A stretch of 64,000 nt of DNA from NCBI GenBank assembly GCA_002189035.1, contig NEEC01000144.1, positions 42,101-106,100 on the forward strand. The letters run 5' to 3'. Shown one piece after another: positions 1 through 31,497 of the stretch. Positions within the stretch are counted from its first letter, which is position 1. Every line of letters begins with the position of its first letter. The notes under the pieces are model-generated. The model was not told the origin of the DNA. It searched no databases and saw nothing but the letters and a program-made list of their open reading frames with translations. The DNA comes from Utricularia gibba (Eukaryota; Streptophyta; Magnoliopsida; Lamiales; Lentibulariaceae). Made by a program: the position numbers and the translations under genes.

Positions 1-10
1 GGCAAAAAAA
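1..10 (+). repeat. Left-edge partial monomer (3' tail)
   Basis: The first ten bases are the GGC plus A-run that ends every monomer. The array therefore continues beyond the left edge of the window. Confidence 0.95.
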
Positions 11-320
11 GTGATCCATTTATTAACGTTGGGTTTTCGGCAGCTGCCTACATTGTTTCTGAAGGAAAAGCTTGTCGTTTTTGGGTGGGTGCTTCGTTGG
101 AAGTTCATCCGGACCCAAGGTTCTGTTCGACTCCTGAGCCCAATCGGGTCCTATTCGACGAAAATCGTGATGCATTTTTGAAGTTAGGATGTCATGAGCA
201 CCCCAAATGGTTTTCATCCACAAGCTTTATATTTGAGGAGGCGCTCTCGAGGGGCACTAGGATCGGGCCGGAGTCAGGTCGGGCTCGGGCCCATAGTCAT
301 TTGTAGCCCGGCAAAAAAAA

Positions 321-476
321 GTGATCCATTTATTAACGTTGGGTTTTCGGCAGCTGCCTACATGGTTTCTGAAGGAAAAGCTTGTCGTTTTGGGTGGGTG
401 CTGTTGTTGGGAACTTCGTCCGGACCCAAGGTTCGGTTCGACTCCTGAGCCCAATGGGTCCTATTCGACGAAAATC
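321..476 (+). repeat. Half-unit A (156 bp) of the reference monomer
   Basis: Half A runs from GTGATCCATTT to just before GTGATGCATTT. Its first 23 positions match the start of a half B with a T6 run at about 18 of 23. Later blocks also match in order: ATGGTTT then CT, AAGCTT at offset 57, CCGGA at 99, TCGA at 117 and GCCCA at 128. Half A carries most of the diagnostic variation: CAGCTG/CACCTG, CATGGT/CATTGT, the GGAACTTCGTCC core and its variants, TTCGG/TTCTG, and AATCGGG/AATGGGG. The 25-bp deletion of the short monomers also lies in this half. Confidence 0.85.
435..445 (+). promoter_or_regulatory. tRNA-type Pol III B-box match (recurs in most monomers)
   Basis: GGTTCGACTCC matches the RNA polymerase III internal B-box consensus GGTTCGANTCC at every position. 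A T-run (T5 here, T6 in many copies) follows about 40 bases downstream and could act as a Pol III terminator. Upstream, TGGTTTCTGAAGG resembles an A box only weakly (wrong base at the conserved A). The T-arm pairing around the B box is imperfect. Monomers with TTCTG in place of TTCGG, or with one G lost, break the first positions. It may be chance, a relic of a tRNA-derived element, or a working promoter element; the sequence alone cannot decide. Confidence 0.25.
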
Positions 477-478
477 GT
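468..478. other. Dyad at the A/B half-unit junction
   Basis: ACGA and TCGT flank an AAA spacer, forming a short perfect inverted repeat that spans the junction between half A and half B. It is kept in nearly all monomers. It overlaps a second small dyad, TTCG-A-CGAA. Short dyads of this sort can extrude hairpins or cruciforms; no function is shown here. Confidence 0.5.
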
Positions 479-632
479 GATGCATTTTTGAAGTTAGGAT
501 GTCATGAGCACCCCAAATGGTTTTCTTGTCCACAAGCTTTATATTTGAGGAGGCGCTCTCGAGGGGCACTAGGATCTGGCCGGAGGTCGGGTCGAACTCG
601 GGCCCATAGTCATTTGTAGCCCGGCAAAAAAA
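477..632 (+). repeat. Half-unit B (156 bp) of the reference monomer
   Basis: Half B runs from GTGATGCATTT to the A-run before the next monomer. It is collinear with half A: AAGCTT at the same offset 57, CCGGA at 103, TCGA at 115 and GCCCA at 125, and it also ends in an A-rich stretch. Identity looks moderate (roughly 60% by eye, not scored). Diagnostic variants are TTGTCCACAAGC, CATCCACAAGC, CAACCACAAGC and CAACCACATGC (the last loses the HindIII site), ACTAGG/ACCAGG/ACCGGG, GATCGGGCC/GATCTGGCC, and the endings GTCGAACTCGG, GTCGGGCTCGG, CATATCGATCTCGG and CACGTCGAAC. Confidence 0.85.
599..623. other. Dyad near the monomer-monomer junction
   Basis: CGGGC at 599-603 pairs with GCCCG at 619-623 across a 15-base spacer. 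In monomers ending GTCGGGCTCGG a six-base stem, CGGGCT with AGCCCG, is also possible. The stem lies just before the terminal A-run, so each ~156-bp half ends in a dyad close to an A-rich run. Confidence 0.4.
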
Positions 633-941
633 GTGATCCATTTATTAACGTTGGGTTTTCGGCAGCTGCCTACATTGTTTCTGAAGGAAAAGCTTGTCGT
701 TTTTGGGTGGTGCTTGTTGGAATTCGTCCGGACCCAAGGTTCGGTTCGACTCCTGAGCCCAATCGGGTCCTATTCGACGAAAATCGTGATGCATTTTTGA
801 AGTTAGGATGTCATGAGCACCCCAAATGGTTTTCTCATCCACAAGCTTTATATTTGAGGAGGCGCTCTCGAGGGGCACCAGGATCGGGCCGGAGGTCAGG
901 TCGGGCTCGGGCCCATAGTCATTTGTAGCCCGGCAAAAAAA

Positions 942-3900
942 GTGATCCATTTATTAACGTTGGGTTTTCGGCAGCTGCCTACATGGTTTCTGAAGGAAAA
1001 GCTTGTCGTTTTTGGGTGGGTGCTTTTGTTGGGAACTTCGTCCGGACCCAAGGTTCGGTTCGACTCCTGAGCCCAATGGGTCCTATTCGACGAAAATCGT
1101 GATGCATTTTTTGAAGTTAGGATGTCATGAGCACCCCAAATGGTTTTCTTGTCCACAAGCTTTATATTTGAGGAGGCGCTCTCGAGGGGCACTAGGATCG
1201 GGCCGGAGGTCAGGTCGGCTCGGCCCATAGTCATTTGTAGCCCGGCAAAAAAGTGATCCATTTATTAACGTTGGGTTTTCGGCACCTGCCTACATGGTTT
1301 CTGAAGGAAAAGCTTGTCGTTTTTGGGTGGGTGCTGTTGTTCGGAACTTCGTCCGGACCCAAGTTCGGTTCGACTCCTGAGCCCAATCGGGTCCTATTCG
1401 ACGAAAATCGTGATGCATTTTTTGAAGTTAGGATGTCATGAGCACCCCAAATGGTTTTCTCAACACATGCTTTTTATTTGAGGAGGCGCTCTCGAGGGGC
1501 ACTAGGATCGGGCCGGAGGTCAGTCGCTCGGGCCCATAGTCATTTGTAGCCCGGCAAAAAAAGTGATCCATTATTAACGTTGGGTTTTCGGCAGCTGCCT
1601 ACATGGTTTCTGAAGGAAAAGCTTGTCGTTTTTGGTGGGTGCTTTTCGGAACTTCGTCCGGACCCAAGGTTCGGTTCGACTCCTGAGCCCAATCGGGTCC
1701 TATTCGACGAAAATCGTGATGCATTTTTTGAAGTTAGGATGTCATGAGCACCCCAAATGGTTTCTCAACACAGCTTTTTATTTGAGAGGCGCTCTCGAGG
1801 GGCACTAGGATCTGGCCGGAGGTCGGGTCGAACTCGGGCCCATAGTCATTTGTAGCCGGCAAAAAAAGTGATCCATTTATTAACGTTGGGTTTTCGGCAG
1901 CTGCCTACATGTTTCTGAAGGAAAAGCTTGTCGTTTTTGGGTGGGTGCTTCGTTGGAAGTTCATCCGGACCCAAGGTTCTGTTCGACTCCTGAGCCCAAT
2001 CGGGTCCTATTCGACGAAATCGTGATGCATTTTTTGAAGTTAGGATGTCATGAGCACCCCAAATGGTTTTCTCATCCACAAGCTTTTATTTGAGGAGGCG
2101 CTCTCGAGGGGCACCGGATCGGGCCGGAATCAGGTCGGGCTCGGGCCCATAGTCATTTGTAGCCCGGCAAAAAAAGTGATCCATTTATTAACGTTGGGTT
2201 TTCGGCAGCTGCCTACATGGTTTCTGAAGGAAAAGCTTGTCGTTTTTGGGGGGTGCTTTGTTGGGAACTTCGTCCGGACCCAAGGTTCGGTTCGACTCTT
2301 GAGCCCAATGGGTCCTATTCGACGAAAATCGTGATGCATTTTTTGAAGTTAGGATGTCATGAGCACCCAAATGGTTTCTTGTCCACAAGCTTTATATTTG
2401 AGGAGGCGCTCTCGAGGGGCACTAGGATCTGGCCGGAGGTCGGGTCGAACTCGGCCCATAGTCATTTGTAGCCCGGCAAAAAAAGTGATCCATTTATTAA
2501 CGTTGGGTTTTCGGCAGCTGCCTACATTGTTTCTGAAGGAAAAGCTTGTCGTTTTTTTGGTGGGTGCTTGTTGGAAGTTCATCCGGACCCAAGGTTCTGT
2601 TCGACTCCTGAGCCCAATCGGGTCCTATTCGACGAAAATCGTGATGCATTTTTGAAGTTAGGATGTCATGAGCACCCCAAATGGTTTTCTCATCCACAAG
2701 CTTTATATTTGAGGAGGCGCTCTCGAGGGGCACCAGGATCGGGCCGGAGTCAGGTCGGCTCGGGCCCATAGTCATTTGTAGCCCGGCAAAAAAAGTGATC
2801 CATTTATTAACGTTGGGTTTTCGGCAGCTGCCTACATGGTTTCTGAAGGAAAAGCTTGTCGTTTTTGGGTGGGTGCTGTTGTTGGGAACTTCGTCCGGAC
2901 CCAAGGTTCGGTTCGACTCCTGAGCCCAATGGGTCCTATTCGACGAAAATCGTGATGCATTTTTTGAAGTTAGGATGTCATGGCACCCCAAATGGTTTTC
3001 TTGTCCACAAGCTTTATATTTGAGGAGGCGCTCTCGAGGGCACTAGGATCTGGCCGGAGGTCGGTCGAACTCGGCCCATAGTCATTTGTAGCCCGGCAAA
3101 AAAAGTGATCCATTTATTAACGTTGGGTTTTCGGCAGCTGCCTACATTGTTTCTGAAGGAAAAGCTTGTCGTTTTTGGGTGGTGCTTGTTGGGAAGTTCA
3201 TCCGGACCCAAGGTTCTGTTCGACTCCTGAGCCCAATCGGGTCCTATTCGACGAAAATCGTGATGCATTTGAAGTTAGGATGTCATGAGCACCCCAAATG
3301 GTTTTCTGAACCACAAGCTTTTTTATTTGAGGAGGCGCTCTCGAGGGCACTAGGATCTGGCCGAGGTCATGTCGAACTCGGGCCCATAGTCATTTGTAGC
3401 CCGGCAAAAAAAGTGATCCATTTACTAACGTTGGGTTTTCGGCAGCTGCCTACATGGTTTCTGAAGGAAAAGCTTGTCGTTTTTGGTGGGTGCTGTTGTT
3501 CGGAACTTCGTCCGGACCCAAGGTTCGGTTCGACTCCTGAGCCCAATCGGGTCCTATTCGACGAAAATCGTGATGCATTTTTGAAGTTAGGATGTCATGA
3601 GCACCCCAAATGTTTTCTCAACCACAGCTTTTTATTTGAGAGGCGCTCTCGAGGGGCACTAGGATGGCCGGAGGTCAGTGGCCATCATTTAGCCCGCAAA
3701 AAAAGTGATCCATTTATTAACGTTGGGTTTTCGGCAGCTGCCTACATGGTTTCTGAAGGAAAAGCTTGTCGTTTTTGGGTGGGTGCTGTTGTTCGGAAAT
3801 TCGTCCGGACCCAAGGTTCGGTTCGACTCCTGAGCCCAATCGGGTCCTATTCGACGAAATCGTGATGCATTTTACTAAAGTTAGGATGTCATGAGCACCC

Positions 3901-4016
3901 CAAATGGTTTTCTCATCCACAAGCTTTATATTTGAGGAGGCGCTCTCGAGGGGCACCAGGATCGGGCCGGAGTCGGTCGGCTCGGGCCCATAGTCATTTG
4001 TAGCCCGGCAAAAAAA
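942..4016 (+). repeat. 10-monomer HOR copy 1 (3075 bp)
   Basis: The monomer order by diagnostic variants is: TTGTCC with a GGTCGGCTCGG end; CACCTG with CAACACATGC; CAACACAGC with GATCTGG; CATCC (GGAAGTTCATCC, TTCTG); TTGTCC/GATCTGG; CATCC/TTCTG; TTGTCC/GATCTGG; TTCTG with GAACCACAAGC; TTTACTAACG with CAACCACAGC; and GGAAATTCGTCC with CATCC. The next copy repeats this order. The ninth monomer (3413-3704) carries a private internal deletion. Confidence 0.75.
3413..3704 (+). repeat. Internally deleted monomer (292 bp)
   Basis: The usual sequence between the GATC and AGCCCG landmarks of half B is reduced near 3664-3696, so that GGTCAGTGGCC joins directly to ATCATTTAGCCCGC. The start carries the rarer TTTACTAACG form. 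No other monomer I examined shares this 3' deletion, so it looks private to this copy. Confidence 0.7.
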
Positions 4017-7000
4017 GTGATCCATTTATTAACGTTGGGTTTTCGGCAGCTGCCTACATGGTTTCTGAAGGAAAAGCTTGTCGTTTTTGGAGGGTGCTTT
4101 GTTGGGAACTTCGTCCGGACCCAAGGTTCGGTTCGACTCTGAGCCCAATGGGGTCCTATTCGACGAAAATCGTGATGCATTTTTTGAAGTTAGGATGTCA
4201 TGAGCACCCCAAATGGTTTCTTGTCCACAAGCTTTATATTTGAGGAGGCGCTCTCGAGGGGCACTAGGATCGGGCCGGAGGTCAGGTCGGGCTCGGCCCA
4301 TAGTCATTTGTAGCCCGGCAAAAAAGTGATCCATTTATTAACGTTGGGTTTTCGGCACCTGCCTACATGGTTTCTGAAGGAAAAGCTTGTCGTTTTTGGG
4401 TGGGTGCTTTGTTCGGAACTTCGTCCGGACCCAAGGTTCGGTTCGACTCCTGAGCCCAATCGGGTCCTATTCGACGAAAATCGTGATGCATTTTTTGAAG
4501 TTAGGATGTCATGAGCACCCCAAATTTTTCTCAACACAGCTTTTTATTTGAGGAGGCGCTCTCGAGGGCACTAGGATCGGGCCGGAGGTCATCGGCTCGG
4601 GCCCATAGTCATTTGTAGCCCGGCAAAAAAAGTGATCCATTTATTAACGTTGGGTTTTCGGCAGCTACATGGTTTCTGAAGGAAAAGCTTGTCGTTTTTG
4701 GTGGGTGCTTTGTTGGGAACTTCGTCCGGACCCAAGGTTCGGTTCGACTCCTGAGCCCAATCCGGTCCTATTCGACGAAAATCGTGATGCATTTTTGAAG
4801 TTAGGATGTCATGAGCACCCCAAATGGTTTTCTCAACCACATGCTTTTATTTGAGGAGGCGCTCTCGAGGGGCACTAGGATCTGGCCGGAGGTCGGGTCG
4901 AACTCGGGCCCATAGTCATTTGTAGCCCGGCAAAAAAGTGATCCATTTATTAACGTTGGGTTTTCGGCAGCTGCCTACATGGTTTCTGAAGGAAAAGCTT
5001 GTCGTTTTTGGGTGGGTGCTTGTTGGAATTCGTCCGGACCCAAGGTTCGTTCGACTCCTGAGCCCAATCGGGTCCTATTCGACGAAATCGTGATGCATTT
5101 TTGAAGTTAGGATGTCATGAGCACCCCAAATGGTTTTCTCATCCACAAGCTTTATATTTGAGGAGGCGCTCTCGAGGGGCACCGGATCGGCCGGAGTCAG
5201 GTCGGCTCGGGCCCATAGTCATTTGTAGCCCGGCAAAAAAAGTGATCCATTTATTAACGTTGGGTTTTCGGCAGCTGCCTACATGGTTTCTGAAGGAAAA
5301 GCTTGTCGTTTTTGGGTGGGTGCTGTTGTTGGGAACTTCGTCCGGACCCAAGGTTCGGTTCGACTCCTGAGCCCAATGGGTCCTATTCGACGAAAATCGT
5401 GATGCATTTTTTGAAGTTAGGATGTCATGAGCACCCCAAATGGTTTTCTTGTCCACAAGCTTTATATTTGAGGAGGCGCTCTCGAGGGGCACTAGGATCT
5501 GGCCGGAGGTCGGGTCGAACTCGGGCCCATAGTCATTTGTAGCCCGGCAAAAAAGTGATCCATTTATTAACGTTGGGTTTTCGGCAGCTGCCTACATGGT
5601 TTCTGAAGGAAAAGCTTGTCGTTTTGGTGGGTGCTTGTTGGAATTCGTCCGGACCCAAGGTTCGTTCGACTCCTGAGCCCAATCGGGTCCTATTCGACGA
5701 AAATCGTGATGCATTTTTTGAAGTTAGGATGTCATGAGCACCCCAAATGGTTTTCTCATCCACAAGCTTTATATTTGAGGAGGCGCTCTCGAGGGGCACC
5801 GGATCGGGCCGGAGTCAGGTCGGGCTCGGGCCCATAGTCATTTGTAGCCCGGCAAAAAAAAGTGATCCATTTATTAACGTTGGGTTTTCGGCAGCTGCCT
5901 ACATGGTTTCTGAAGGAAAAGCTTGTCGTTTTTTGGGGGTGCTGTTGTTGGGAACTTCGTCCGGACCCAAGGTTCGGTTCGACTCTGAGCCCAATGGGGT
6001 CCTATTCGACGAAAATCGTGATGCATTTTTTGAAGTTAGGATGTCATGAGCACCCCAAATGGTTTTCTGTCCACAAGCTTTATATTTGAGGAGGCGCTCT
6101 CGAGGGGCACTAGGATCTGGCCGGAGGTCGGGTCGAACTCGGGCCCATAGTCATTTGTAGCCCGGCAAAAAAAGTGATCCATTTATTAACGTTGGGTTTT
6201 CGGCAGCTGCCTACATTGTTTCTGAAGGAAAAGCTTGTCGTTTTTGGGTGGGTGCTTTCGTTGGAATTCGTCCGGACCCAAGGTTCTGTTCGACTCCTGA
6301 GCCCAATCGGGTCCTATTCGACGAAAATCGTGATGCATTTTTGAAGTTAGGATGTCATGAGCACCCCAAATGGTTTTCTGTCCACAAGCTTTTATTTTGA
6401 GAGGCGCTCTCGAGGGCACTAGGATCTGGCCGGAGTCGGGTCGAACTCGGGGCCATAGTCATTTGTAGCCCGGCAAAAAAAGTGATCCATTTATTAACGT
6501 TGGGTTTTCGGCAGCTGCCTACATGGTTTCTGAAGGAAAAGCTTGTCGTTTTTGGGTGGGTGCTGTTGTTCGGAACTTCGTCCGGACCCAAGGTTCGGTT
6601 CGACTCCTGAGCCCAATCGGGTCCTATTCGACGAAAATCGTGATGCATTTTTTGAAGTTAGGATGTCATGAGCACCCCAAATGGTTTTCTCAACCACAAG
6701 CTTTTTATTTGAGGAGGCGCTCTCGAGGGGCACTAGGATCTGGCCGGAGGTCAGGTCGAACTCGGCCCATAGTCATTTGTAGCCCGGCAAAAAAAAGTGA
6801 TCCATTTATTAACGTTGGGTTTTCGGCAGCTGCCTACATGGTTTCTGAAGGAAAAGCTTGTCGTTTTTGGGTGGTGCTGTTGTTCGGAAATTCGTCCGAC
6901 CCAAGGTTCGGTTCGACTCCTGAGCCCAATCGGGTCCTATTCGACGAAAATCGTGATGCATTTTTTGAAGTTAGGATGTCATGAGCACCCCAAATGGTTT

Positions 7001-7108
7001 TCTCATCCACAAGCTTTATATTTGAGGAGGCGCTCTCGAGGGGCACCAGGATCGGGCCGGAGTCGGGTCGGGCTCGGGCCCATAGTCATTTGTAGCCCGG
7101 CAAAAAAA
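4017..7108 (+). repeat. 10-monomer HOR copy 2 (3092 bp)
   Basis: This copy has the same ten positions in the same order as 942-4016, including the CACCTG/CAACACAGC monomer second and the GGAAATTCGTCC/CATCC monomer last. Differences include AATCCGG in the third monomer, EcoRI-type GGAATTCGTCC cores in the CATCC monomers, and loss of TTTACTAACG from the ninth. Confidence 0.75.
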
Positions 7109-9572
7109 GTGATCCATTTATTAACGTTGGGTTTTCGGCAGCTGCCTACATGGTTTCTGAAGGAAAAGCTTGTCGTTTTTGGTGGGTGCTTTTGTTGGGA
7201 ACTTCGTCCGGACCCAAGGTTCGGTTCGACTCCTGAGCCCAATGGGGTCCTATTCGACGAAAATCGTGATGCATTTTTTGAAGTTAGGATGTCATGAGCA
7301 CCCCAAATGGTTTTCTTGTCCACAAGCTTTATATTTGAGGAGGCGCTCTCGAGGGCACTAGGATCGGGCCGAGTCAGGTCGGGCTCGGGCCCATAGTCAT
7401 TTGTAGCCCGGCAAAAAAAGTGATCCATTTATTAACGTTGGGTTTTCGGCAGCTGCCTACATGGTTTCTGAAGGAAAAGCTTGTCGTTTTTGGGTGGGTG
7501 CTGTTGTTCGGAACTTCGTCCGGACCCAAGTTCGGTTCGACTCCTGAGCCCAATCGGGTCCTATTCGACGAAAATCGTGATGCATTTTTTGAAGTTAGGA
7601 TGTCATGAGCACCCCAAATGGTTTTCTCAACACAAGCTTTTTATTTGAGGAGGCGCTCTCGAGGGCACTAGGATCGGGCCGGAGTCAGTCGCTCGGGCCC
7701 ATAGTCATTTGTAGCCCGGCAAAAAAGTGATCCATTTATTAACGTTGGGTTTTCGGCAGCTGCCTACATGGTTTCTGAAGGAAAAGCTTGTCGTTTTTGG
7801 TGGTGCTTTTTTGGAACTTCGTCCGGACCCAAGGTTCGGTTCGACTCCTGAGCCCAATCGGTCCCCGAAAATCGTGATGCATTTTTGAAGTTAGGATGTC
7901 ATGAGCACCCCAAATGGTTTTCTCAACCACAGCTTTTTATTTGAGAGGCGCTCTCGAGGGCACTAGGATCTGGCCGGAGGTCGGGTCGAACTCGGGCCCA
8001 TAGTCATTTGTAGCCCGGCAAAAAAAGTGATCCATTTTATTAACGTTGGGTTTTCGGCAGCTGCCTACATTGTTTCTGAAGGAAAAGCTTGTCGTTTTTG
8101 GTGGGTGCTTGTTGGAAGTTCATCCGGACCCAAGGTTCTGTTCGACTCCTGAGCCAATCGGGTCCTATTCGACGAAAATCGTGATGCATTTTTGAAGTTA
8201 GGATGTCATGAGCACCCCAAATGGTTTTCTCATCCACAAGCTTTATATTTGAGGAGGCGCTCTCGAGGGGCACCAGGATCGGGCCGGAGTCAGGTCGGGC
8301 TCGGGCCCATAGTCATTTGTAGCCCGGCAAAAAAAGTGATCCATTTATTAACGTTGGGTTTTCGGCAGCTGCCTACATGGTTTCTGAAGGAAAAGCTTGT
8401 CGTTTTTGGGGGGTGCTTTGTTGGAACTTCGTCCGGACCCAAGGTTCGGTTCGACTCCTGAGCCCAATGGTCCTATTCGACGAAAATCGTGATGCATTTT
8501 TTGAAGTTAGGATGTCATGAGCACCCCAAATGGTTTTCTTGTCCACAAGCTTTATATTTGAGGAGGCGCTCTCGAGGGGCACTAGGATCTGGCCGGAGGT
8601 CGGGTCGAACTCGGCCCATAGTCATTTGTAGCCCGGCAAAAAAAGTGATCCATTTATTAACGTTGGGTTTTCGGCAGCTGCCTACATGGTTTCTGAAGGA
8701 AAAAGCTTGTTTTTGGGGGTGCTTTGTTGGGAATTCGTCCGGACCAAGGTTCGGTTCGACTCCTGAGCCCAATCGGGTCCTATTCGACGAAAATCGTGAT
8801 GCATTTTTTGAAGTTAGGATGTCATGAGCACCCCAAATGGTTTTCTCAACCACAAGCTTTTTATTTGAGGAGGCGCTCTCGAGGGGCACTAGGATCTGGC
8901 CGGAGGTCGGTCGAACTCGGGCCATAGTCATTTGTAGCCCGGCAAAAAAAGTGATCCATTTACTAACGTTGGGTTTTCGGCAGCTGCCTACATGGTTTCT
9001 GAAGGAAAAGCTTGTCGTTTTTGGGTGGGTGCTGTTGTTCGGAACTTCGTCCGGACCCAAGGTTCGGTTCGACTCCTGAGCCCAATCGGGTCCTATTCGA
9101 CGAAAATCGTGATGCATTTTTTGAAGTTAGGATGTCATGAGCACCCCAAATGGTTTTCTCAACACAGCTTTTTATTTGAGGAAGGCGCTCTCGAGGGCAC
9201 TAGGATCTGGCCGGAGGTCAGTCGAACTCGGCCCATAGTCATTTGTAGCCCGGCAAAAAAAAGTGATCCATTTATTAACGTTGGGTTTTCGGCAGCTGCC
9301 TACATGGTTTCTGAAGGAAAAGCTTGTCGTTTTTGGGTGGGTGCTGTTGTTCGGAAATTCGTCCGGACCCAAGGTTCGGTTCGACTCCTGAGCCCAATCG
9401 GTCCTATTCGACGAAATCGTGATGCATTTTTGAAGTTAGGATGTCATGAGCACCCCAAATGGTTTTCTCTCCACAAGCTTTATATTTGAGGAGGCGCTCT
9501 CGAGGGGCACCAGGATCGGGCCGGAGTCGGGTCGGGCTCGGGCCCATAGTCATTTGTAGCCCGGCAAAAAAA
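7109..9572 (+). repeat. 8-monomer derivative of the 10-monomer HOR (2464 bp)
   Basis: The order of copies 1 and 2 is kept at both ends, including the TTTACTAACG monomer (about 8950) followed by the GGAAATTCGTCC monomer (about 9262). One CATCC/TTGTCC pair is missing from the middle. The simplest reading is loss of one dimer by unequal exchange. Confidence 0.65.
7727..8026 (+). repeat. Monomer with small deletion before the A/B junction
   Basis: In this copy GGTCC is followed directly by CCGAAAATCG near 7860, so the bases that normally read TATTCGA between them are missing. The junction dyad is broken as a result. The core is also shortened (TTTTTTGGAACTTCG). Confidence 0.65.
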
Positions 9573-12036
9573 GTGATCCATTTATTAACGTTGGGTTTTC
9601 GGCAGCTGCCTACATGGTTTCTGAAGGAAAAGCTTGTCGTTTTTGGGTGGGTGCTTTGTTGGGAACTTCGTCCGGACCCAAGGTTCGGTTCGACTCTGAG
9701 CCCAATGGGTCCTATTCGACGAAAATCGTGATTTTTTGAAGTTAGGATGTCATGAGCACCCCAAATGGTTTTCTTGTCCACAAGCTTTATATTTGAGGAG
9801 GCGCTCTCGAGGGCACTAGGATCGGGCCGGAGGTCAGGTCGCTCGGCCCATAGTCATTTGTAGCCCGGCAAAAAATGTGATCCATTTATTAACGTTGGGT
9901 TTTCGGCACCTGCCTACATGGGTGAAGGAAAAGCTTGTCGTTTTTGGGGTGGTGCTGTTGTTCGGAATTCGTCCGGACCCAAGTTCGGTTCGACTCCTGA
10001 GCCCAATCGGTCCTATTCGAAAAATCGTGATGCATTTTTTTGAAGTTAGGATGTCATGAGCACCCCAAATGGTTTTCTCAACACATGCTTTTTATTTGAG
10101 AGGCGCTCTCGAGGGGCACTAGGATCGGCCGGAGGTCTCGACTCGGGCCCATAGTCATTTGTAGCCCGGCAAAAAAAAGTGATCCATTTATTAACGTTGG
10201 GTTTTCGGCAGCTGCCTACATGGTTTCTGAAGGAAAAGCTTGTCGTTTTTGGTGGGTGCTTTGTTGGAACTTCGTCCGGACCCAAGGTTCGGTTCGACTC
10301 CTGAGCCCAATCCGGTCCTATTCGACGAAAATCGTGATGCATTTTTTGAAGTTAGGATGTCATGAGCACCCCAAATGGTTTTCTCAACCACATGCTTTTT
10401 ATTTGAGGAGGCGCTCTCGAGGGGCACTAGGATCGGCCGGAGGTCGGGTCGCTCGGGCCCATAGTCATTTGTAGCCCGGCAAAAAAAGTGATCCATTTAT
10501 TAACGTTGGGTTTTCGGCAGCTGCCTACATTGTTTCTGAAGGAAAAGCTTGTCGTTTTTGTGGGTGCTTGTTTGGAATTCATCCGGACCCAAGGTTCTGT
10601 TCGACTCCTGAGCCCAATCGGGTCCTATTCGACGAAAATCGTGATGCATTTTTGAAGTTAGGATGTCATGAGCACCCCAAATGGTTTTCTCATCCACAAG
10701 CTTTATATTTGAGGAGGCGCTCTCGAGGGGCACCGGATCGGGCCGGAGTCGGTCGGCTCGGGCCCATAGTCATTTGTAGCCCGGCAAAAAAAGTGATCCA
10801 TTTATTAACGTTGGGTTTTCGGCAGCTGCCTACATGGTTTCTGAAGGAAAAGCTTGTCGTTTTTGGGAGGGTGCTGTTGTTGGAACTTCGTCCGGACCCA
10901 AGGTTCGGTTCGACTCTTGAGCCCAATGGGTCCTATTCGACGAAAATCGTGATGCATTTTTTGAAGTTAGGATGTCATGGCACCCCAAATGGTTTTCTTG
11001 TCCACAAGCTTTATATTTGAGGAGGCGCTCTCGAGGGCACTAGGATCTGGCCGGAGGTCGGTCGAACTCGGGCCCATAGTCATTTGTAGCCCGGCAAAAA
11101 AAGTGATCCATTTATTAACGTTGGGTTTTCGGCAGCTGCCTACATGGTTTCTGAAGGAAAAGCTTGTCGTTTTTGGGTGGGTGCTGTTGTTGGAACTTCG
11201 TCCGGACCCAAGGTTCGGTTCGACTCCTGAGCCCAATGGGTCCTATTCGACGAAAATCGTGATGCATTTTTTGAAGTTAGGATGTCATGAGCACCCCAAA
11301 TGGTTTTCTCATCCACAAGCTTTATATTTGAGGAGGCGCTCTCGAGGGCACAGGATCGGGCCGGAGGTCGGGTCGGGCTCGGCCCATAGTCATTTGTAGC
11401 CCGGCAAAAAAAGTGATCCATTTATTAACGTTGGGTTTTCGGCAGCTGCCTACATGGTTTCTGAAGGAAAAAGCTTGTCGTTTTTGGGTGGGTGCTTTCG
11501 TTGGGAATTCGTCCGGACCCAAGGTTCGGTTCGACTCCTGAGCCCAATGGGGTCCTATTCGACGAAAATCGTGATGCATTTTTTGAAGTTAGGATGTCAT
11601 GAGCACCCCAAATGGTTTTCTTGTCCACAAGCTTTATATTTGAGGAGGCGCTCTCGAGGGGCACCAGGATCGGCCGGAGGTCGGGTCGCTCGGCCCATAG
11701 TCATTTGTAGCCCGGCAAAAAAAGTGATCCATTTATTAACGTTGGTTTTCGGCAGCTGCCTACATGGTTTCTGAAGGAAAAGCTTGTCGTTTTTGGGAGG
11801 GTGCTTTTGTTTGGGAACTTCGTCCGGACCCAAGGTTCGGTTCGACTCTGAGCCCAATGGGGTCCTATTCGACGAAAATCGTGATGCATTTTTTGAAGTT
11901 AGGATGTCATGGGCACCCCAAATGGTTTTCTTGTCCACAAGCTTTATATTTGAGGAGGCGCTCTCGAGGGGCACTAGGATCTGGCCGGAGGTCGGTCGAA
12001 CTCGGGCCCATAGTCATTTGTAGCCCGGCAAAAAAA

Positions 12037-12320
12037 GTGATCCATTTATTAACGTTGGGTTTTCGGCAGCTGCCTACATGGTTTCTGAAGGAAAAGCTTG
12101 TCGTTTTTGGTAAGGTGCTTTCATTGGGAACTTCGTTCGGACCAATCGGTCCTATTCGACGAAAATCGTGATGCATTTATTGAAGTTAGGATGTCATGAG
12201 CACCCCAAATGGTTTTCTCATCCACAAGCTTTATATTTGAGGAGGCGCTCTCGAAGGCACCGGGATCGGCCGAGGTCGGGTCGGGCTCGGCCCATAGTCA
12301 TTTGTAGCCCGGCAAAAAAA
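12037..12320 (+). repeat. Short monomer S1 (284 bp, 25-bp CCCAA deletion type)
   Basis: The stretch from the first CCCAA to just before the second CCCAA in half A is missing, leaving TTCGTTCGGACCAATCGG. Linked changes are GGTAAGGTGC, TTCATTGGG, TCCGG changed to TTCGG, and GCATTTATTGAAG. Half B is of the CATCC type. It lies about 9 kb from the next short monomer, outside the regular domain-3 register. Confidence 0.85.
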
Positions 12321-13569
12321 GTGATCCATTTATTAACGTTGGGTTTTCGGCAGCTGCCTACATGGTTTCTGAAGGAAAAGCTTGTCGTTTTTGGGTGGGT
12401 GCTGTTGTTCGGAACTTCGTCCGGACCCAAGGTTCGGTTCGACTCCTGAGCCCAATCGGGTCCTATTCGACGAAAATCGTGATGCATTTTTTTGAAGTTA
12501 GGATGTCATGAGCACCCCAAATGGTTTTCTTGTCCACAAGCTTTATATTTGAGGAGGCGCTCTCGAGGGGCACTAGATCTGGCCGGAGGTCGGGTCGAAC
12601 TCGGCCCATAGTCATTTGTAGCCCCGGCAAAAAAAGTGATCCATTTATTAACGTTGGGTTTTTTCGGCAGCTGCCTACATTGTTTCTGAAGGAAAAGCTT
12701 GTCGTTTTTGGGTGGGTGCTTTGTTGGGAAGTTCATCCGGACCCAAGGTTCTGTTCGACTCCTGAGCCCAATGGGGTCCTATTCGACGAAAATCGTGATG
12801 CATTTTTTGAAGTTAGGATGTCATGAGCACCCCAAATGGTTTTCTTGTCCACAAGCTTTATATTTGAGGAGGCGCTCTCGAGGGCACTAGGATCTGCCGG
12901 AGGTCGGTCGAACTCGGGCCCATAGTCATTTGTAGCCCGGCAAAAAAAGTGATCCATTTATTAACGTTGGGTTTTCGGCAGCTGCCTACATGGTTTCTGA
13001 AGGAAAAGCTTGTCGTTTTTGGGTGGGTGCTTTTGTTGGAACTTCGTCCGGACCCAAGGTTCGGTTCGACTCCTGAGCCCAATGGGTCCTATTCGACGAA
13101 AATCGTGATGCATTTTTTGAAGTTAGGATGTCATGGCACCCCAAATGGTTTTCTTGTCCACAAGCTTTATATTTGAGGAGGCGCTCTCGAGGGGCACCAG
13201 GATCGGGCCGGAGGTCAGGTCGGGCTCGGCCCCATAGTCATTTGTAGCCCGGCAAAAATGTGATCCATTTATTAACGTTGGGTTTTCGGCACCGCCTACA
13301 GTTTGTGAAGGAAAAGCTTGTCGTTTTTGGGTGGGTGCTGTTGTTCGGAACTTCGTCCGGACCCAAGTTCGGTTCGACTCCTGAGCCCAATCGGTCCTAT
13401 TCGACGAAAATCGTGATGCATTTTTTGAAGTTAGGATGTCATGAGCACCCCAAATGGTTTTCTCAACCACATGCTTTTTATTTGAGGAGGCGCTCTCGAG
13501 GGGCACTAGGATCGGGCCGGAGGTCATATCGATCTCGGGCCCATAGTCATTTGTAGCCCGGCAAAAAAA

Positions 13570-13868
13570 GTGATCCATTTATTAACGTTGGGTTTTCGGC
13601 AGCTGTGGTTTCTGAAGGAAAAGCTTGTCGTTTTTGGGTGGGTGCTTTTTGGGAACTTCGTCCGGACCCAAGGTTCGGTTCGACTCCTGAGCCCAATGGG
13701 GTCCTATTCGACGAAAATGTGATGCATTTTTTGAAGTTAGGATGTTGGCACCAAATGGTTTTCTCAACCACATGCTTTTATTTGAGGAGGCGCTCTCGAG
13801 GGGCACTAGGATCTGGCCGGAGGTCGGTCGAACTCGGGCCCATAGTCATTTGTAGCCCGGCAAAAAAA
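13570..13868 (+). repeat. Multiply deleted monomer (299 bp)
   Basis: Several short losses occur in one copy: CAGCTG runs directly into TGGTTTCTG near 13604, the junction reads GAAAATGTGATGC, and ATGTTGGCACCAAATGG replaces the usual ATGTCATGAGCACC stretch near 13743. It is flanked by ordinary monomers. Confidence 0.65.
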
Positions 13869-16800
13869 GTGATCCATTTATTAACGTTGGGTTTTCGGCA
13901 GCTGCCTACATGGTTTCTGAAGGAAAAGCTTGTCGTTTTTGGGTGGGTGCTGTTGTTTCGGAACTTCGTCCGGACCCAAGGTTCGGTTCGACTCCTGAGC
14001 CCAATGGGTCCTATTCGACGAAAATCGTGATGCATTTTTTGAAGTTAGGATGTCATGAGCACCCCAAATGGTTTTCTCAACCACAAGCTTTTATTTGAGG
14101 AGGCGCTCTCGAGGGGCACTAGGATCTGGCCGGAGGTCAGGTCGAACTCGGGCCTAGTCATTTTGTAGCCCGGCAAAAAAGTGATCCATTTATTAACGTT
14201 GGGTTTTCGGCAGCTGCCTACATGGTTTCTGAAGGAAAAGCTTGTCGTTTTTGGGTGGGTGCTGTTGTTCGGAACTTCGTCCGGACCCAAGGTTCGGTTC
14301 GACTCCTGAGCCCAATCGGGTCCTATTCGACGAAATCGTGATGCATTTTTAAAGTTAGGATGTCATGAGCACCCCAAATGGTTTTCTCATCCACAAGCTT
14401 TATTTGAGGAGGCGCTCTCGAGGGGCACTAGGATCGGGCCGGAGGTCGGGTCGGGCTCGGCCATAGTCATTTGTAGCCCGGCAAAAAAAGTGATCCATTT
14501 ATTAACGTTGGGTTTTCGGCAGCTGCCTACATGGTTTCTGAAGGAAAAGCTTGTCGTTTTTGGGTGGGTGCTTTTGTTGGGAACTTCGTCCGGACCCAAG
14601 GTTCGGTTCGACTCTGAGCCCAATGGGGTCCTATTCGACGAAAATCGTGATGCATTTTTTGAAGTTAGGATGTCATGGGCACCCAAATGGTTTTCTTGTC
14701 CACAAGCTTTATATTTGAGGAGGCGCTCTCGAGGGGCACTAGGATCGGGCCGGAGGTCGGGTCGAACTCGGGCCCATAGTCATTTGTAGCCGGCAAAAAA
14801 TGTGATCCATTTATTAACGTTGGGTTTTTCGGCAGCCTACATGGTTTGTGAAGGAAAAGCTTGTCGTTTTTGGGTGGGTGCTGTTGTTGGGAACTTCGTC
14901 CGGACCCAAGGTTCGGTTCGACTCCTGAGCCCAATCGGGTCCTATTCGACGAAAATCGTGATGCATTTTTTGAAGTTAGGATGTCATGAGCACCAAATGG
15001 TTTTCTCCACAAGCTTTTTATTTGAGGAGGCGCTCTCGAGGGGCACTAGGATCGGGCCGGAGGTCATATCGATCTCGGCCCATAGTCATTTGTAGCCCGG
15101 CAAAAAAAGTGATCCATTATTAACGTTGGGTTTTCGGCAGCTGCCATGGTTTCTGAAGGAAAAGCTTGTCGTTTTTGGTTGGGTGCTTTCATTGGGAACT
15201 TCGTCCGGACCCAAGGTTCGGTTCGACTCCTGAGCCCAATGGGTCCTATTCGACGAAATCGTGATGCATTTTGAAGTTAGGATGTCATGAGCACCCCAAA
15301 TGGTTTTCTCAACCACATGCTTTTATTTGAGGAGGCGCTCTCGAGGGGCACTAGGATCTGGCCGGAGGTCGGGTCGAACTCGGCCCATAGTCATTTGTAG
15401 CCCGGCAAAAAAAGTGATCCATTTATTAACGTTGGGTTTTCGGCAGCTGCCTACATGGTTTCTGAAGGAAAAGCTTGTCGTTTTTGGGTGGGTGCTGTTG
15501 TTGGAAATTCGTCCGGACCCAAGGTTTCGTTCGACTCCTGAGCCCAATCGGGTCCTATTCGACGAAAATCGTGATGCATTTTTTGAAGTTAGGATGTCAT
15601 GAGCACCCAAATGGTTTTCTCAACCACAAGCTTTATATTTGAGGAGGCGCTCTCGAGGGGCACTAGGATCGGGCCGGAGGTCATTCGAACTCGGGCCCAT
15701 AGTCATTTGTAGCCCGGCAAAAAAAGTGATCCATTTATTAACGTTGGGTTTTCGGCAGCTGCCTACATGGTTTCTGAAGGAAAAGCTTGTCGTTTTTGGG
15801 TGGGTGCTTTGTTGGGAACTTCGTCCGGACCCAAGGTTCGGTTCGACTCCTGAGCCCAATCGGGTCCTATTCGACGAAAATCGTGATGCATTTTTGAAGT
15901 TAGGATGTCATGAGCACCCCAAATGGTTTTCTCACCACAAGCTTTATATTTGAGGAGGCGCTCTCGAGGGCACTAGGATCGGCCGGAGGTCGGTCGGGCT
16001 CGGGCCCATAGTCATTTGTAGCCCGGCAAAAAAAGTGATCCATTTATTAACGTTGGGTTTTCGGCAGCTGCCTACATGGTTTCTGAAGGAAAAGCTTGTC
16101 GTTTTTGGGTGGGTGCTTTGTTGGAAGTTCGTCCGGACCCAAGGTTCGGTTCGACTCCTGAGCCCAATCGGGTCCTATTCGACGAAAATCGTGATGCATT
16201 TTTGAAGTTAGGATGTCATGAGCACCCCAAATGGTTTTCTCATCCACAAGCTTTATATTTGAGGAGGCGCTCTCGAGGGGCACTAGGATCGGGCCGGAGG
16301 TCAGGTCGGGCTCGGGCCCATAGTCATTTGTAGCCCGGCAAAAAAAGTGATCCATTTATAACGTTGGGTTTTCGGCAGCTGCCTACATGGTTTCTGAAGG
16401 AAAAGCTTGTCGTTTTTGGGTGGGTGCTGTTGTTGGGAACTTCGTCCGGACCCAAGGTTCGGTTCGACTCCTGAGCCCAATGGGGTCCTATTCGACGAAA
16501 ATCGTGATGCATTTTTTGAAGTTAGGATGTCATGAGCACCCCAAATGGTTTTCTTGTCCACAAGCTTTATATTTGAGGAGGCGCTCTCGAGGGGCACTAG
16601 GATCGGCCGGAGGTCGGGTCGATCGGGCCCATAGTCATTTGTAGCCCGGCAAAAAAAGTGATCCATTTATTAACGTTGGGTTTTCGGCAGCTGCCTACAT
16701 GGTTTCTGAAGGAAAAGCTTGTCGTTTTTGGGTGGGTGCTTTGTTGGGAAGTTCATCCGGACCCAAGGTTCGTTCGACTCCTGAGCCCAATCGGGTCCTA

Positions 16801-18212
16801 TTCGACGAAAATCGTGATGCATTTTTGAAGTTAGGATGTCATGAGCACCCCAAATGGTTTTCTCAACCACAAGCTTTTTATTTGAGGAGGCGCTCTCGAG
16901 GGCACTAGGATCGGCCGGAGGTCGGGTCGAACTCGGGCCCATAGTCATTTGTAGCCCGGCAAAAAAAGTGATCCATTTATTAACGTTGGGTTTTCGGCAG
17001 CTGCCTACATGGTTTCTGAAGGAAAAGCTTGTCGTTTTTGGGTGGGTGCTTTGTTGGGAACTTCGTCCGGACCCAAGGTTCGGTTCGACTCCTGAGCCCA
17101 ATGGGGTCCTATTCGACGAAAATCGTGATGCATTTTTTGAAGTTAGGATGTCATGAGCACCCCAAATGGTTTTCTCATCCACAAGCTTTATATTTGAGGA
17201 GGCGCTCTCGAGGGCACCGGGATCGGGCCGGAGGTCGGGTCGGGCTCGGCCCCATAGTCATTTGTAGCCCGGCAAAAAAAGTGATCCATTTATTAACGTT
17301 GGGTTTTCGGCAGCTGCCTACATGGTTTCTGAAGGAAAAGCTTGTCGTTTTTGGGTGGGTGCTTTGTTGGAATTCGTCCGGACCCAAGGTTCGGTTCGAC
17401 TCCTGAGCCCAATCGGGTCCTATTCGACGAAAATCGTGATGCATTTTTTGAAGTTAGGATGTCATGAGCACCCAAATGGTTTTCTCATCCACAAGCTTTA
17501 TATTTGAGGAGGCGCTCTCGAGGGGCACCGGGATCGGGCCGGAGGTCGGGTCGGGCTCGGCCCATAGTCATTTGTAGCCCGGCAAAAAAAGTGATCCATT
17601 TATTAACGTTGGGTTTTCGGCAGCTGCCTACATGGTTTCTGAAGGAAAAGCTTGTCGTTTTTGGGTGGGTGCTGTTTTTTGGAATTCGTCCGGACCCAAG
17701 GTTCGGTTCGACTCCTGAGCCCAATCGGGTCCTATTCGACGAAAATCGTGATGCATTTTTGAAGTTAGGATGTCATGAGCACCCCAAATGGTTTTCTTGT
17801 CCACAAGCTTTATATTTGAGGAGGCGCTCTCGAGGGGCACTAGGATCGGCCGGAGGTCGGGTCGAACTCGGGCCCATAGTCATTTGTAGCCCGGCAAAAA
17901 AAGTGATCCATTTATTAACGTTGGGTTTTCGGCAGCTGCCTACATGTTTCTGAAGGAAAAGCTTGTCGTTTTTGGGTGGGTGCTTTGTTGGGAATTCGTC
18001 CGGACCCAAGGTTCGGTTCGACTCCTGAGCCCAATGGGGTCCTATTCGACGAAAATCGTGATGCATTTTTTGAAGTTAGGATGTCATGAGCACCCCAAAT
18101 GGTTTTCTTGTCCACAAGCTTTATATTTGAGGAGGCGCTCTCGAGGGGCACTAGGATCGGGCCGGAGGTCGGTCGGGCTCGGCCCATAGTCATTTGTAGC
18201 CCGGCAAAAAAA

Positions 18213-19150
18213 GTGATCCATTTATTAACGTTGGGTTTTCGGCACCTGCCTACATGGTTTCTGAAGGAAAAGCTTGTCGTTTTTGGGTGGGTGCTGTTGT
18301 TCGGAAATTCGTCCGGACCCAAGGTTCGGTTCGACTCCTGAGCCCAATCGGGTCCTATTCGACGAAAATCGTGATGCATTTTTTGAAGTTAGGATGTCAT
18401 GAGCACCCCAAATGGTTTTCTCAACCACATGCTTTATTTGAGGAGGCGCTCTCGAGGGGCACTAGGATCGGGCCGGAGGTCATATCGATCTCGGGCCCAT
18501 AGTCATTTGTAGCCCGGCAAAAAAAGTGATCCATTTATTAACGTTGGGTTTTCGGCAGCTGCCTACATGGTTTCTGAAGGAAAAGCTTGTCGTTTTTGGG
18601 TGGGTGCTTTTTTGGGAACTTCGTCCGGACCCAAGGTTCGGTTCGACTCCTGAGCCCAATGGGGTCCTATTCGACGAAAATCGTGATGCATTTTTTGAAG
18701 TTAGGATGTCATGAGCACCCCAAATGGTTTTCTTGTCCACAAGCTTTATATTTGAGGAGGCGCTCTCGAGGGGCACCAGGATCGGGCCGGAGGTCAGGTC
18801 GGGCTCGGCCCCATAGTCATTTGTAGCCCGGCAAAAAAAGTGATCCATTTATTAACGTTGGGTTTTCGGCAGCTGCCTACATGGTTTCTGAAGGAAAAGC
18901 TTGTCGTTTTTGGGTGGGTGCTTTGTTGGAAATTCGTCCGGACCCAAGGTTCGGTTCGACTCCTGAGCCCAATCGGGTCCTATTCGACGAAAATCGTGAT
19001 GCATTTTTGAAGTTAGGATGTCATGAGCACCCCAAATGGTTTTCTCAACCACAAGCTTTATATTTGAGGAGGCGCTCTCGAGGGGCACTAGGATCGGCCG
19101 GAGGTCGGGTCGAACTCGGGCCCATAGTCATTTGTAGCCCGGCAAAAAAA
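18213..19150 (+). repeat. 3-monomer HOR copy 1 (938 bp)
   Basis: Monomers start at 18213 (CACCTG, GGAAATTCG, CACATGC, CATATCGATC end), 18526 (AATGGGG, TTGTCC, CACCAGG, GGCTCGGCCCC end) and 18840 (AATCGGG, CAACCACAAGC, GTCGAACTCGG end). The following 937 bp repeat this order. Confidence 0.7.
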
Positions 19151-20087
19151 GTGATCCATTTATTAACGTTGGGTTTTCGGCAGCTGCCTACATGGTTTCT
19201 GAAGGAAAAGCTTGTCGTTTTTGGGTGGGTGCTGTTGTTCGGAACTTCGTCCGGACCCAAGGTTCGGTTCGACTCCTGAGCCCAATCGGGTCCTATTCGA
19301 CGAAAATCGTGATGCATTTTTTGAAGTTAGGATGTCATGAGCACCCCAAATGGTTTTCTCAACCACAAGCTTTTTATTTGAGGAGGCGCTCTCGAGGGGC
19401 ACTAGGATCGGGCCGGAGGTCATATCGATCTCGGGCCCATAGTCATTTGTAGCCCGGCAAAAAAAGTGATCCATTTATTAACGTTGGGTTTTCGGCAGCT
19501 GCCTACATGGTTTCTGAAGGAAAAGCTTGTCGTTTTTGGGTGGGTGCTTTGTTGGGAACTCGTCCGGACCCAAGGTTCGGTTCGACTCCTGAGCCCAATG
19601 GGGTCCTATTCGACGAAAATCGTGATGCATTTTTTGAAGTTAGGATGTCATGAGCACCCCAAATGGTTTTCTGTCCACAAGCTTTATATTTGAGGAGGCG
19701 CTCTCGAGGGGCACCAGGATCGGGCCGAGGTCAGGTCGGGCTCGGCCCCATAGTCATTTGTAGCCCGGCAAAAAAGTGATCCATTTATTAACGTTGGGTT
19801 TTCGGCACTGCCTACATGGTTTCTGAAGGAAAAGCTTGTCGTTTTTGGGTGGGTGCTTTGTTCGGAAATTCGTCCGGACCAAGGTTTCGGTTCGACTCCT
19901 GAGCCCCAATCGGGTCCTATTCGACGAAAATCGTGATGCATTTTTGAAGTTAGGATGTCATGAGCACCCCAAAATGGTTTTCTCAACACATGCTTTTTAT
20001 TTGAGGAGGCGCTCTCGAGGGGCACTAGGATCGGCCGGAGGTCGGGTCGAACTCGGGCCCATAGTCATTTGTAGCCCGGCAAAAAAA
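19151..20087 (+). repeat. 3-monomer HOR copy 2 (937 bp)
   Basis: Monomers at 19151, 19466 and 19776 repeat the order of copy 1: CATATCGATC end; then AATGGGG with CACCAGG and a GGCTCGGCCCC end; then a GTCGAACTCGG end. The next monomer (20088) starts a third round with the CATATCGATC end, but the register is lost after it. Confidence 0.7.
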
Positions 20088-21331
20088 GTGATCCATTTAT
20101 TAACGTTGGGTTTTCGGCACCTGCCTACATGTTTCTGAAGGAAAAGCTTGTCGTTTTTGGGTGGGTGCTGTTGTTCGGAACTTCGTCCGGACCCAAGGTT
20201 CGGTTCGACTCCTGAGCCCAATCGGGTCCTATTCGACGAAAATCGTGATGCATTTTTTGAAGTTAGGATGTCATGAGCACCCCAAATGGTTTTCTCAACC
20301 ACATGCTTTTTATTTGAGGAGGCGCTCTCGAGGGGCACTAGGATCGGGCCGGAGGTCATATCGATCTCGGGCCCATAGTCATTTGTAGCCCGGCAAAAAA
20401 AGTGATCCATTTATTAACGTTGGGTTTTCGGCAGCTGCCTACATGGTTTCTGAAAAAGCTTGTCGTTTTTGGGAGGGTGCTGTTGTTGGGAACTTCGTCC
20501 GGACCCAAGGTTCGGTTCGACTCCTGAGCCCAATGGGTCCTATTCGACGAAAATCGTGATGCATTTTTTGAAGTTAGGATGTCATGGCACCCCCAAATGG
20601 TTTTCTTGTCCACAAGCTTTATATTTGAGGAGGCGCTCTCGAGGGCACTAGGATCTGGCCGGAGGTCGGGTCGAACTCGGGCCCATAGTCATTTGTAGCC
20701 CGGCAAAAAAAGTGATCCATTTATTAACGTTGGGTTTTCGGCAGCTGCCTACATGTTTCTGAAGGAAAAGCTTGTCGTTTTTGGGTGGGTGCTTTCGTTG
20801 GGAATTCATCCGGACCCAAGGTTCGTTCGACTCCTGAGCCCAATGGGGTCCTATTCGACGAAAATCGTGATGCATTTTTTGAAGTTAGGATGTCATGAGC
20901 ACCCCAAATGGTTTCTTGTCCACAAGCTTTATATTTGAGGAGGCGCTCTCGAGGGCACCAGGATCGGGCCGGAGGTCAGGTCGGGCTCGGCCCCATAGTC
21001 ATTTGTAGCCCGGCAAAAAAAGTGATCCATTTTAACGTTGGGTTTTCGGCAGCTGCCTACATGGTTTCTGAAGGAAAAGCTTGTCGTTTTTGGGTGGGGT
21101 GCTGTTGTTCGGAACTTCGTCCGGACCCAAGGTTCGGTTCGACTCCTGAGCCCAATCGGGTCCTATTCGACGAAAATCGTGATGCATTTTTTGAAGTTAG
21201 GATGTCATGAGCACCCCAAATGGTTTTCTCAACCACATGCTTTTTATTTGAGGAGGCGCTCTCGAGGGGCACTAGGATCGGGCCGGAGGTCGTCGATCTC
21301 GGCCCATAGTCATTTGTAGCCCGGCAAAAAA

Positions 21332-21614
21332 GTGATCCATTTATTAACGTTGGGTTTTCGGCAGCTGCCTACATGGTTTCTGAAGGAAAAGCTTGTCGTT
21401 TTTGGTGGTGCTTTTTGGGAACTTCGTTCGGACCCAATCCGGTCCTATTCGACGAAAATCGTGATGCATTTTTGAAGTTAGGATGTCATGAGCACCCCAA
21501 ATGGTTTTCTCATCCACAAGCTTTATATTTGAGGAGGCGCTCTCGAGGGCACCGGGATCGGCCGGAGGTCGGGTCGGGCTCGGGCCCATAGTCATTTGTA
21601 GCCCGGCAAAAAAA
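21332..21614 (+). repeat. Short monomer S2 (283 bp, 25-bp CCCAA deletion type)
   Basis: The core reads TTCGTTCGGACCCAATCCGG, keeping exactly one CCCAA where full monomers have two. That makes this the clearest copy for placing the deletion endpoints. It lacks the TTCATTGGG and ATTTATTGAAG changes of other short monomers, so it may be an early or partly converted form. Confidence 0.85.
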
Positions 21615-24600: not shown

Positions 24601-25019
24601 ATGGTTTTCTCATCCACAAGCTTTATATTTGAGGAGGCGCTCTCGAGGGGCACCGGGATCGGGCCGGAGGGGTCGGGCTCGGGCCCATAGTCATTTGTAG
24701 CCGGCAAAAAAAGTGATCCATTTATAACGTTGGGTTTTCGGCAGCTGCCTACATGGTTTCTGAAGGAAAAGCTTGTCGTTTTTGGGTGGGTGCTTTTTTG
24801 GAAATTCGTCCGGACCCAAGGTTCGGTTCGACTCCTGAGCCAATCGGGTCCTATTCGACGAAAATCGTGATGCATTTTTGAAGTTAGGATGTCATGAGCA
24901 CCCCAAATGGTTTTCTTGTCCACAAGCTTTATATTTGAGGAGGCGCTCTCGAGGGGCACTAGGATCGGCCGGAGGTCGGGTCGAACTCGGCCCATAGTCA
25001 TTTGTAGCCCGGCAAAAAA

Positions 25020-25306
25020 GTGATCCATTTATTAACGTTGGGTTTTCGGCAGCTGCCTACATGGTTTCTTAAGGAAAAGCTTGTCGTTTTTGGTGGTGCT
25101 TTCATTGGGAACTTCGTTCGGACCAATCCGGTCCTATTCGACGAAAATCGTGATGCATTTATTGAAGTTAGGATGTCATGAGCACCCCAAATGGTTTTCT
25201 CTCATCCACAAGCTTTATATTTGAGGAGGCGCTCTCGAGGGCACCGGGATCGGCCGGAGGTCGGGTCGGGCTCGGGCCCATAGTCATTTGTAGCCCGGCA
25301 AAAAAA
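25020..25306 (+). repeat. Short monomer S3 (287 bp, 25-bp CCCAA deletion type)
   Basis: It carries the linked set TTTCTTAAGG, TTCATTGGG, TTCGTTCGGACCAATCCGG and GCATTTATTGAAG, with a CATCC-type half B and an ACCGGG motif. A small CT duplication precedes CATCC. Confidence 0.85.
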
Positions 25307-28300: not shown

Positions 28301-28736
28301 GAGCACCCCAAATGGTTTTCTCAACCACATGCTTTTTATTTGAGAAGGCGCTCTCGAGGGGCACTAGGATCTGGCGGAGGTCGGGTCGAACTCGGCCCAT
28401 AGTCATTTGTAGCCGGCAAAAAAAGTGATCCATTTATTAACGTTGGGTTTTCGGCAGCTGCCTACATGGTTTCTGAAGGAAAAGCTTGTCGTTTTTGGGT
28501 GGGTGCTTCCGTTGGAAGTTCGTCCGGACCCAAGGTTCTGTTCGACTCCTGAGCCCAATCGGGTCCTATTCGACGAAAATCGTGATGCATTTACTAAAGT
28601 TAGGATGTCATGAGCACCCCAAATGGTTTTCTCATCCACAAGCTTATATTTCAGGAGGCGCTCTCGAGGGGCACCGGGATCGGGCCGGATATCGGGTCGG
28701 GCTCGGGCCCATAGTCATTTGTAGCCCGGCAAAAAA

Positions 28737-29047
28737 GTGATCCATTTATTTATTGGTTTTTTCGGCAGCTGCCTACATGGTTTCTGAAGGAAAAGCTTGT
28801 CGTTTTTGGGTGCTTTGTTGTTGGGAACTTCGTCCGGACCCAAGGTTCGGTTCGACTCTTGAGCCCAATGGGGTCCTATTCGACGAAAATCGTGATGCAT
28901 TTTTTGAAGTTAGGATGTCATGGGCACCCCAAATGGTTTTCTTGTCCACAAGCTTTATATTTGAGGAGGCGCTCTCGAGGGGCACTAGGATCTGGCCGGA
29001 GGTCGGGTCGAACTCGGGCCCATAGTCATTTGTAGCCCGGAAAAAAA
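28737..29047 (+). repeat. Monomer with rearranged 5' end
   Basis: After GTGATCCATTTATT the usual AACGTTGGGTTTTCGG is replaced by TATTGGTTTTTTCGG (28741-28768 region), removing the otherwise near-invariant AACGTT. The core is also compressed (TTTTTGGGTGCTTTG). The rest of the monomer is ordinary. Confidence 0.65.
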
Positions 29048-31212: not shown

Positions 31213-31497
31213 GTGATCCATTTATTAACGTTGGGTTTTCGGCAGCTGCCTACATGGTTTCTTAAGGAAAAGCTTGTCGTTTTTGGTAAGGTGCTTTCAT
31301 TGGGAACTTCGTTCGGACCAATCGGTCCTATTCGACGAAAATCGTGATGCATTTATTGAAGTTAGGATGTCATGAGCACCCAAATGGTTTTCTCATCCAC
31401 AAGCTTTATATTTGAGGAGGCGCTCTCGAGGGCACTAGGATCGGGCCGGAGGTCGGGTCGGGCTCGGGCCCATAGTCATTTGTAGCCCGGCAAAAAA
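31213..31497 (+). repeat. Short monomer S4 (285 bp, 25-bp CCCAA deletion type)
   Basis: It carries TTTCTTAAGG, GGTAAGGTGC, TTCATTGGG, TTCGTTCGGACCAATCGG and GCATTTATTGAAG. It marks position 1 of a 9-monomer HOR copy. Confidence 0.85.

What the first reader, a model, noticed from the sequence alone, without database searches (positions are those of the whole stretch)
321..632. The 310-bp satellite monomer is a diverged dimer of a ~156-bp ancestral unit
Splitting the reference monomer at its two GTGAT[C/G]CATTT motifs gives two halves of exactly 156 bp with collinear landmarks: AAGCTT at offset 57 in both, CCGGA at 99/103, TCGA at 117/115 and GCCCA at 128/125. The first 23 positions match at about 18 when half B has T6, and ATGGTTT-CT recurs before AAGCTT in both. 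A ~155-bp base unit is a frequent length for plant centromeric satellites. This suggests a small repeat that became a dimeric unit, with the dimer now the unit of homogenisation.
Basis: seen in the sequence. Interest (0 to 1): 0.7.

Follow-up and report, generated by a model that had tools for sequence, protein, structure and literature searches.

The report
Plant satellite DNA with two-part unit
The 310-letter block repeated over 200 times in this stretch of a plant genome is really two old, diverged copies of a roughly 156-letter unit that now spread together as a pair, a well-known way for satellite DNA to evolve, here in a genome (probably the bladderwort Utricularia gibba) whose assembled centromeres were reported to lack satellites.

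Summary
Confirmed. The window is one unbroken satellite array (207 units, ~310 bp, 96.4% mean identity).

The same genome supplies independent support. Two further subfamilies (about 79-87% identical to each other and to this one) fill other contigs in strict ABABAB order. All A units and all B units fall on opposite sides of one 100%-supported branch, so the split predates the family. A-A and B-B neighbours at ~156 bp are nearly absent (2 and 7 cases): no monomeric array was found. Dimers are combined into larger repeats: two on contig C456, four (1,250 bp) on C47.

Dimeric satellites are well known (New World monkey 343-bp repeat; AB dimers in many species), so this is a new member of a known kind. 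More notable: the family makes up roughly 2-2.5% of an assembly that looks like U. gibba, yet its core words were not listed on the four largest contigs. Centromere function is untested.

The parts
1..64000 (+). Uninterrupted satellite array, 207 head-to-tail AB dimers of ~310 bp; it runs to the end of contig C130 and at least from that contig's start
   Evidence: TRF; unit extraction; upstream stretch and contig start also satellite
321..476 (+). Half A of the reference dimer (156 bp), starts GTGATCCATTTATTAACG
477..632 (+). Half B of the reference dimer (156 bp), starts GTGATGCATTTTTGAAG
378..383 (+). AAGCTT at offset 57 of half A
534..539 (+). AAGCTT at offset 57 of half B

Best explanation
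The array is a dimeric satellite. An ancestral ~156-bp tandem monomer gave rise to two diverged variants, A and B. One AB pair was then amplified by recombination-based copying (unequal exchange, break-induced replication or rolling-circle reinsertion), and from then on homogenisation acted on the pair, so A stays like A and B like B while the two remain only about 70% alike. In some arrays the process has gone further and homogenises blocks of two or four dimers. Shown: A-B homology, a single A/B split older than all subfamilies, strict alternation, larger repeat orders. Inferred: the ancestral monomer array, the copying mechanism and any chromosomal role. The most likely role is structural heterochromatin, possibly centromeric, on chromosomes that the assembly leaves broken.
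For: A-B alignment z 7-8 in the window and 4.1-9.5 in six other A/B pairs; best of 157 rotations; strict ABAB in 355 units on six other contigs; A|B split with 100% support and length 0.54 in a tree of 76 units from seven contigs; A-A and B-B neighbours nearly absent; two-dimer repeat on C456 and four-dimer repeat on C47, lag identity 0.994 and 0.996 against 0.81-0.87.
Against: No monomeric array was found, so the ancestral stage is not seen; the searches used exact words and would miss strongly diverged monomers. No flanking unique DNA was found, so location and role are open.
Confidence: 0.93

Rival explanations
1. A and B come from two already separate but related monomer families that were joined once, rather than from neighbouring variants in a single monomer array. 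Homogenisation then acts on the joined pair just the same.
For: A and B are far apart (branch 0.54 substitutions per site) and no array of A alone or B alone remains.
Against: The halves match along their whole length in one register, as expected of variants in one array; no separate family was seen. The two histories leave much the same trace, so this is hard to exclude.
Confidence: 0.2
2. The dimer is kept by selection: A and B each hold one nucleosome and bind different proteins, so only the pair works, much as alternate human alpha-satellite monomers carry the CENP-B box.
For: Strict alternation across three diverged subfamilies and unit length close to one nucleosome; an A/B dimer with a box in every second monomer is described for alpha-satellite (PMC8997354).
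Against: Alternation follows from copying dimers alone; no binding or nucleosome data here; no protein box was tested.
Confidence: 0.15
3. The similarity of the halves is chance or shared base composition.
For: The strictest local scoring gives only a short match (first 48 bp, p 0.0012).
Against: z 7-8 against dinucleotide and block shuffles, low scores for reverse complement and reversed sequence, repeated in other subfamilies.
Confidence: 0.01
4. The satellite contigs belong to a contaminating organism and not to the plant.
For: Every satellite stretch sampled is pure satellite with no link to other sequence; core words were not listed on C1-C33.
Against: About 2 Mb or more of it in three subfamilies; satellites commonly break contigs, which also explains missing flanks.
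Confidence: 0.12

Closest known systems
New World monkey 343-bp centromere repeat, a dimer of the 171-bp unit (PMC4053949)
   Same: Unit twice a nucleosome-scale base length; the two halves are weakly related; the doubled version is the dominant tandem repeat.
   Different: Different lineage and sequence; there the 171-bp monomeric form survives in relatives, here no monomeric form was found; centromere location not tested here.
AB dimer higher-order repeats of plants and animals, e.g. Sorghum bicolor (PMC4053949)
   Same: A units cluster with A and B with B; dimers are more alike than neighbouring monomers.
   Different: Here A and B are far more diverged (about 70% identity over aligned columns), so repeat finders see only the dimer.
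Human alpha-satellite SF1/SF2 dimers and their chromosome-specific higher-order repeats (PMC8997354)
   Same: A/B dimer as building block of longer repeats of 2, 3 or 4 dimers; monomers within a repeat 50-70% alike, repeat copies nearly identical.
   Different: Plant, unrelated sequence, ~156-bp unit; no CENP-B box tested; no disordered monomeric edges seen.
Genlisea nigrocaulis centromere-associated 161-bp repeat Gn7c161 (PMC4542322)
   Same: Same plant family if the genome is Utricularia; similar base unit length.

Membership tests
Satellite DNA | Long head-to-tail array of near-identical non-coding units | tested here: met
   207 units, 96.4% mean identity over 64 kb
Dimeric (AB) higher-order repeat | Halves homologous to each other beyond chance | tested here: met
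   z 7-8 against two kinds of shuffle
Dimeric (AB) higher-order repeat | Identity between dimers much higher than between the two halves | tested here: met
   96.4% against 69-71%
Dimeric (AB) higher-order repeat | A and B units form separate clades | tested here: met
   A|B split with 100% support, 76 units from seven contigs
Dimeric (AB) higher-order repeat | Monomeric ancestral form known | tested here: not met
   No A-A or B-B arrays found with exact words; not a required feature of an AB dimer
Centromeric satellite | Associated with CENH3 chromatin or primary constriction | not testable with these tools
   No ChIP or FISH data; only unit length and abundance are suggestive
Genlisea Gn7c161 centromere repeat | Sequence similarity | tested here: inconclusive
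   Primer sequences only; not significant after allowing for the number tried

The most novel reading that the evidence does not exclude
If the genome is Utricularia gibba, its published picture of centromeres without satellites (PMC8333044) may be an assembly bias: the chromosomes assembled whole would be those without this dimeric satellite, while chromosomes that carry it are broken, leaving about 2-2.5 Mb of ABAB arrays as loose contigs. The genome would then hold both satellite and satellite-free centromeres, or large non-centromeric satellite blocks.
Probability: 0.3. Interest if true: 0.6.

Novelty: new member of a known kind. Interest (0 to 1): 0.4.

Why it matters
It documents a dimeric satellite in which further steps are visible within one small plant genome (one, two and four dimers as the homogenised block), a compact case for testing how higher-order repeats grow. 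It also flags roughly 2-2.5% of an assembly that a published account of satellite-free centromeres may not have taken into account.

Tried and rejected
A column-sharing test gave 23 against 19 expected, uninformative. A deeper 78- or 52-bp origin of the 156-bp unit: no support. Kinship with the 161-bp Genlisea repeat: primers only, not significant. Flanks of the arrays, to place them on a chromosome: all sampled contig ends and stretches were satellite. A first lag analysis missed dimers and was replaced. Species identity could not be proven, as there is no plant database here; it rests on size (100.09 Mb, 516 contigs), TTTAGGG telomeres and four contigs of 3.8-8.5 Mb listed first, set against papers giving 101 Mb for U. 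gibba (PMC6982007) and four putatively entire chromosomes (PMC8333044).

Full report
What was claimed.

Check of the observation. Both halves are exactly 156 bp in that unit and every quoted landmark offset is right. The window is one uninterrupted array: TRF finds period 310 with 207.3 copies, and 207 extracted units are 96.4% identical on average. A-B global alignment of the unit: 103 of 145 aligned columns identical, z 7.3 against dinucleotide shuffles and 7.0 against shuffles within 20-bp blocks; for the consensus of all units z 8.0 and 7.7. The strictest local scoring finds only the first 48 bp (p 0.0012), so the similarity is spread thinly over the whole length.

Independent evidence from the same genome. 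The window is the end of contig C130 in a 100.09-Mb, 516-contig assembly. A search for GTGATGCATTT at ~156-bp spacing led to contig C47, which carries a related satellite. Three subfamilies can be told apart: I (C130, C117, C164, C272; 94% or more identical to each other per half), II (C47, C456) and III (C37 and, by a shared 50-bp word, C34, C50, C52); identity between subfamilies is about 78-87% per half. In 355 units decomposed from eight stretches of six contigs other than C130, order is strictly ABAB. A tree of 76 units from seven contigs separates all A from all B with 100% bootstrap support and a branch of 0.54 substitutions per site. So the A/B split is older than the subfamilies. B-B and A-A neighbours at ~156 bp occur at 7 and 2 places, many of them in disordered stretches or as A/B hybrids, against 6,093 copies of one 16-bp B word. 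No monomeric array was found, within the limits of exact words.

Higher orders. In C47, dimers four apart are 0.996 identical and closer ones 0.84-0.87: a 1,250-bp repeat of four dimers, eight base units. In C456 the repeat is two dimers (0.994 against 0.81). In the window neighbouring dimers are already 97-98% alike, with a weak excess at lag 9 (z 5.9) and 18 (z 4.2). Homogenisation has thus acted on one, two or four dimers in different arrays.

Mechanism. Shown: homology of the halves, one old split, strict alternation, larger repeat orders. Inferred: a monomeric ancestor, and spread by unequal exchange or break-induced replication (models reviewed in PMC8997354) or by extrachromosomal circles (PMC2543021, abstract only). 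A selective reason for the pair, such as phasing of two nucleosomes, is possible and untested.

Amount and place. A 27-bp A word with up to three mismatches occurs at 8,199 places, about 2.5 Mb at 310 bp each; the exact 16-bp B word at 6,093 places gives about 1.9 Mb. Zero-mismatch listings appear in contig order and begin at C37, C34 and C47 for three core words, so the words appear absent from C1-C33, which include four contigs of 8.5, 6.2, 5.3 and 3.8 Mb. The ordering is inferred from the output, and diverged copies or withheld stretches would escape. Telomere repeats of the TTTAGGG type start C1-C3. All this fits Utricularia gibba, for which PMC8333044 reports four putatively entire chromosomes and, citing the genome paper, no satellite repeats in the putative centromeric regions. 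The species is an inference.

Comparison. PMC4053949 describes the same process: the New World monkey 343-bp repeat as a dimer of the 171-bp unit, and clear higher-order structure in 76 of 171 species, with A and B forming separate clades. The present satellite meets those tests and is a new member of a known kind. No paper describing it was found in the open-licence library; the U. gibba genome paper itself was not held.

Noticed in passing
window units starting near 3410, 12033, 21328, 25016, 31209, 33978, 35509, 38271, 44145, 46920: Ten short units of 283-291 bp; those read by eye in a neighbouring stretch (L009, 2161-2460 and 4910-5180) lack about 25 bp near GGACC...CAATC in half A, suggesting one deletion variant that spread.
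   Followed up: partly
window 1-64000: Weak periodicity of nine dimers (~2.8 kb): identity excess at lag 9 (z 5.9) and lag 18 (z 4.2).
   Followed up: partly
G000 contigs C1-C33: None of three satellite core words is listed on these contigs, although they include the four largest seen; published satellite-free centromeres of U. gibba may reflect which chromosomes assembled.
   Followed up: partly
L012 (G000:C103:20001-30000), positions about 4000-9000; also L029, L034, L037: Disordered satellite stretches with broken and inserted pieces; may be poor assembly or real scrambled repeats.
   Followed up: no
L029 and L036: A/B hybrid units that switch from one half to the other near matching positions (ATGGTTT, AAGC), as expected of exchange between homologous halves; assembly error not excluded.
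   Followed up: partly
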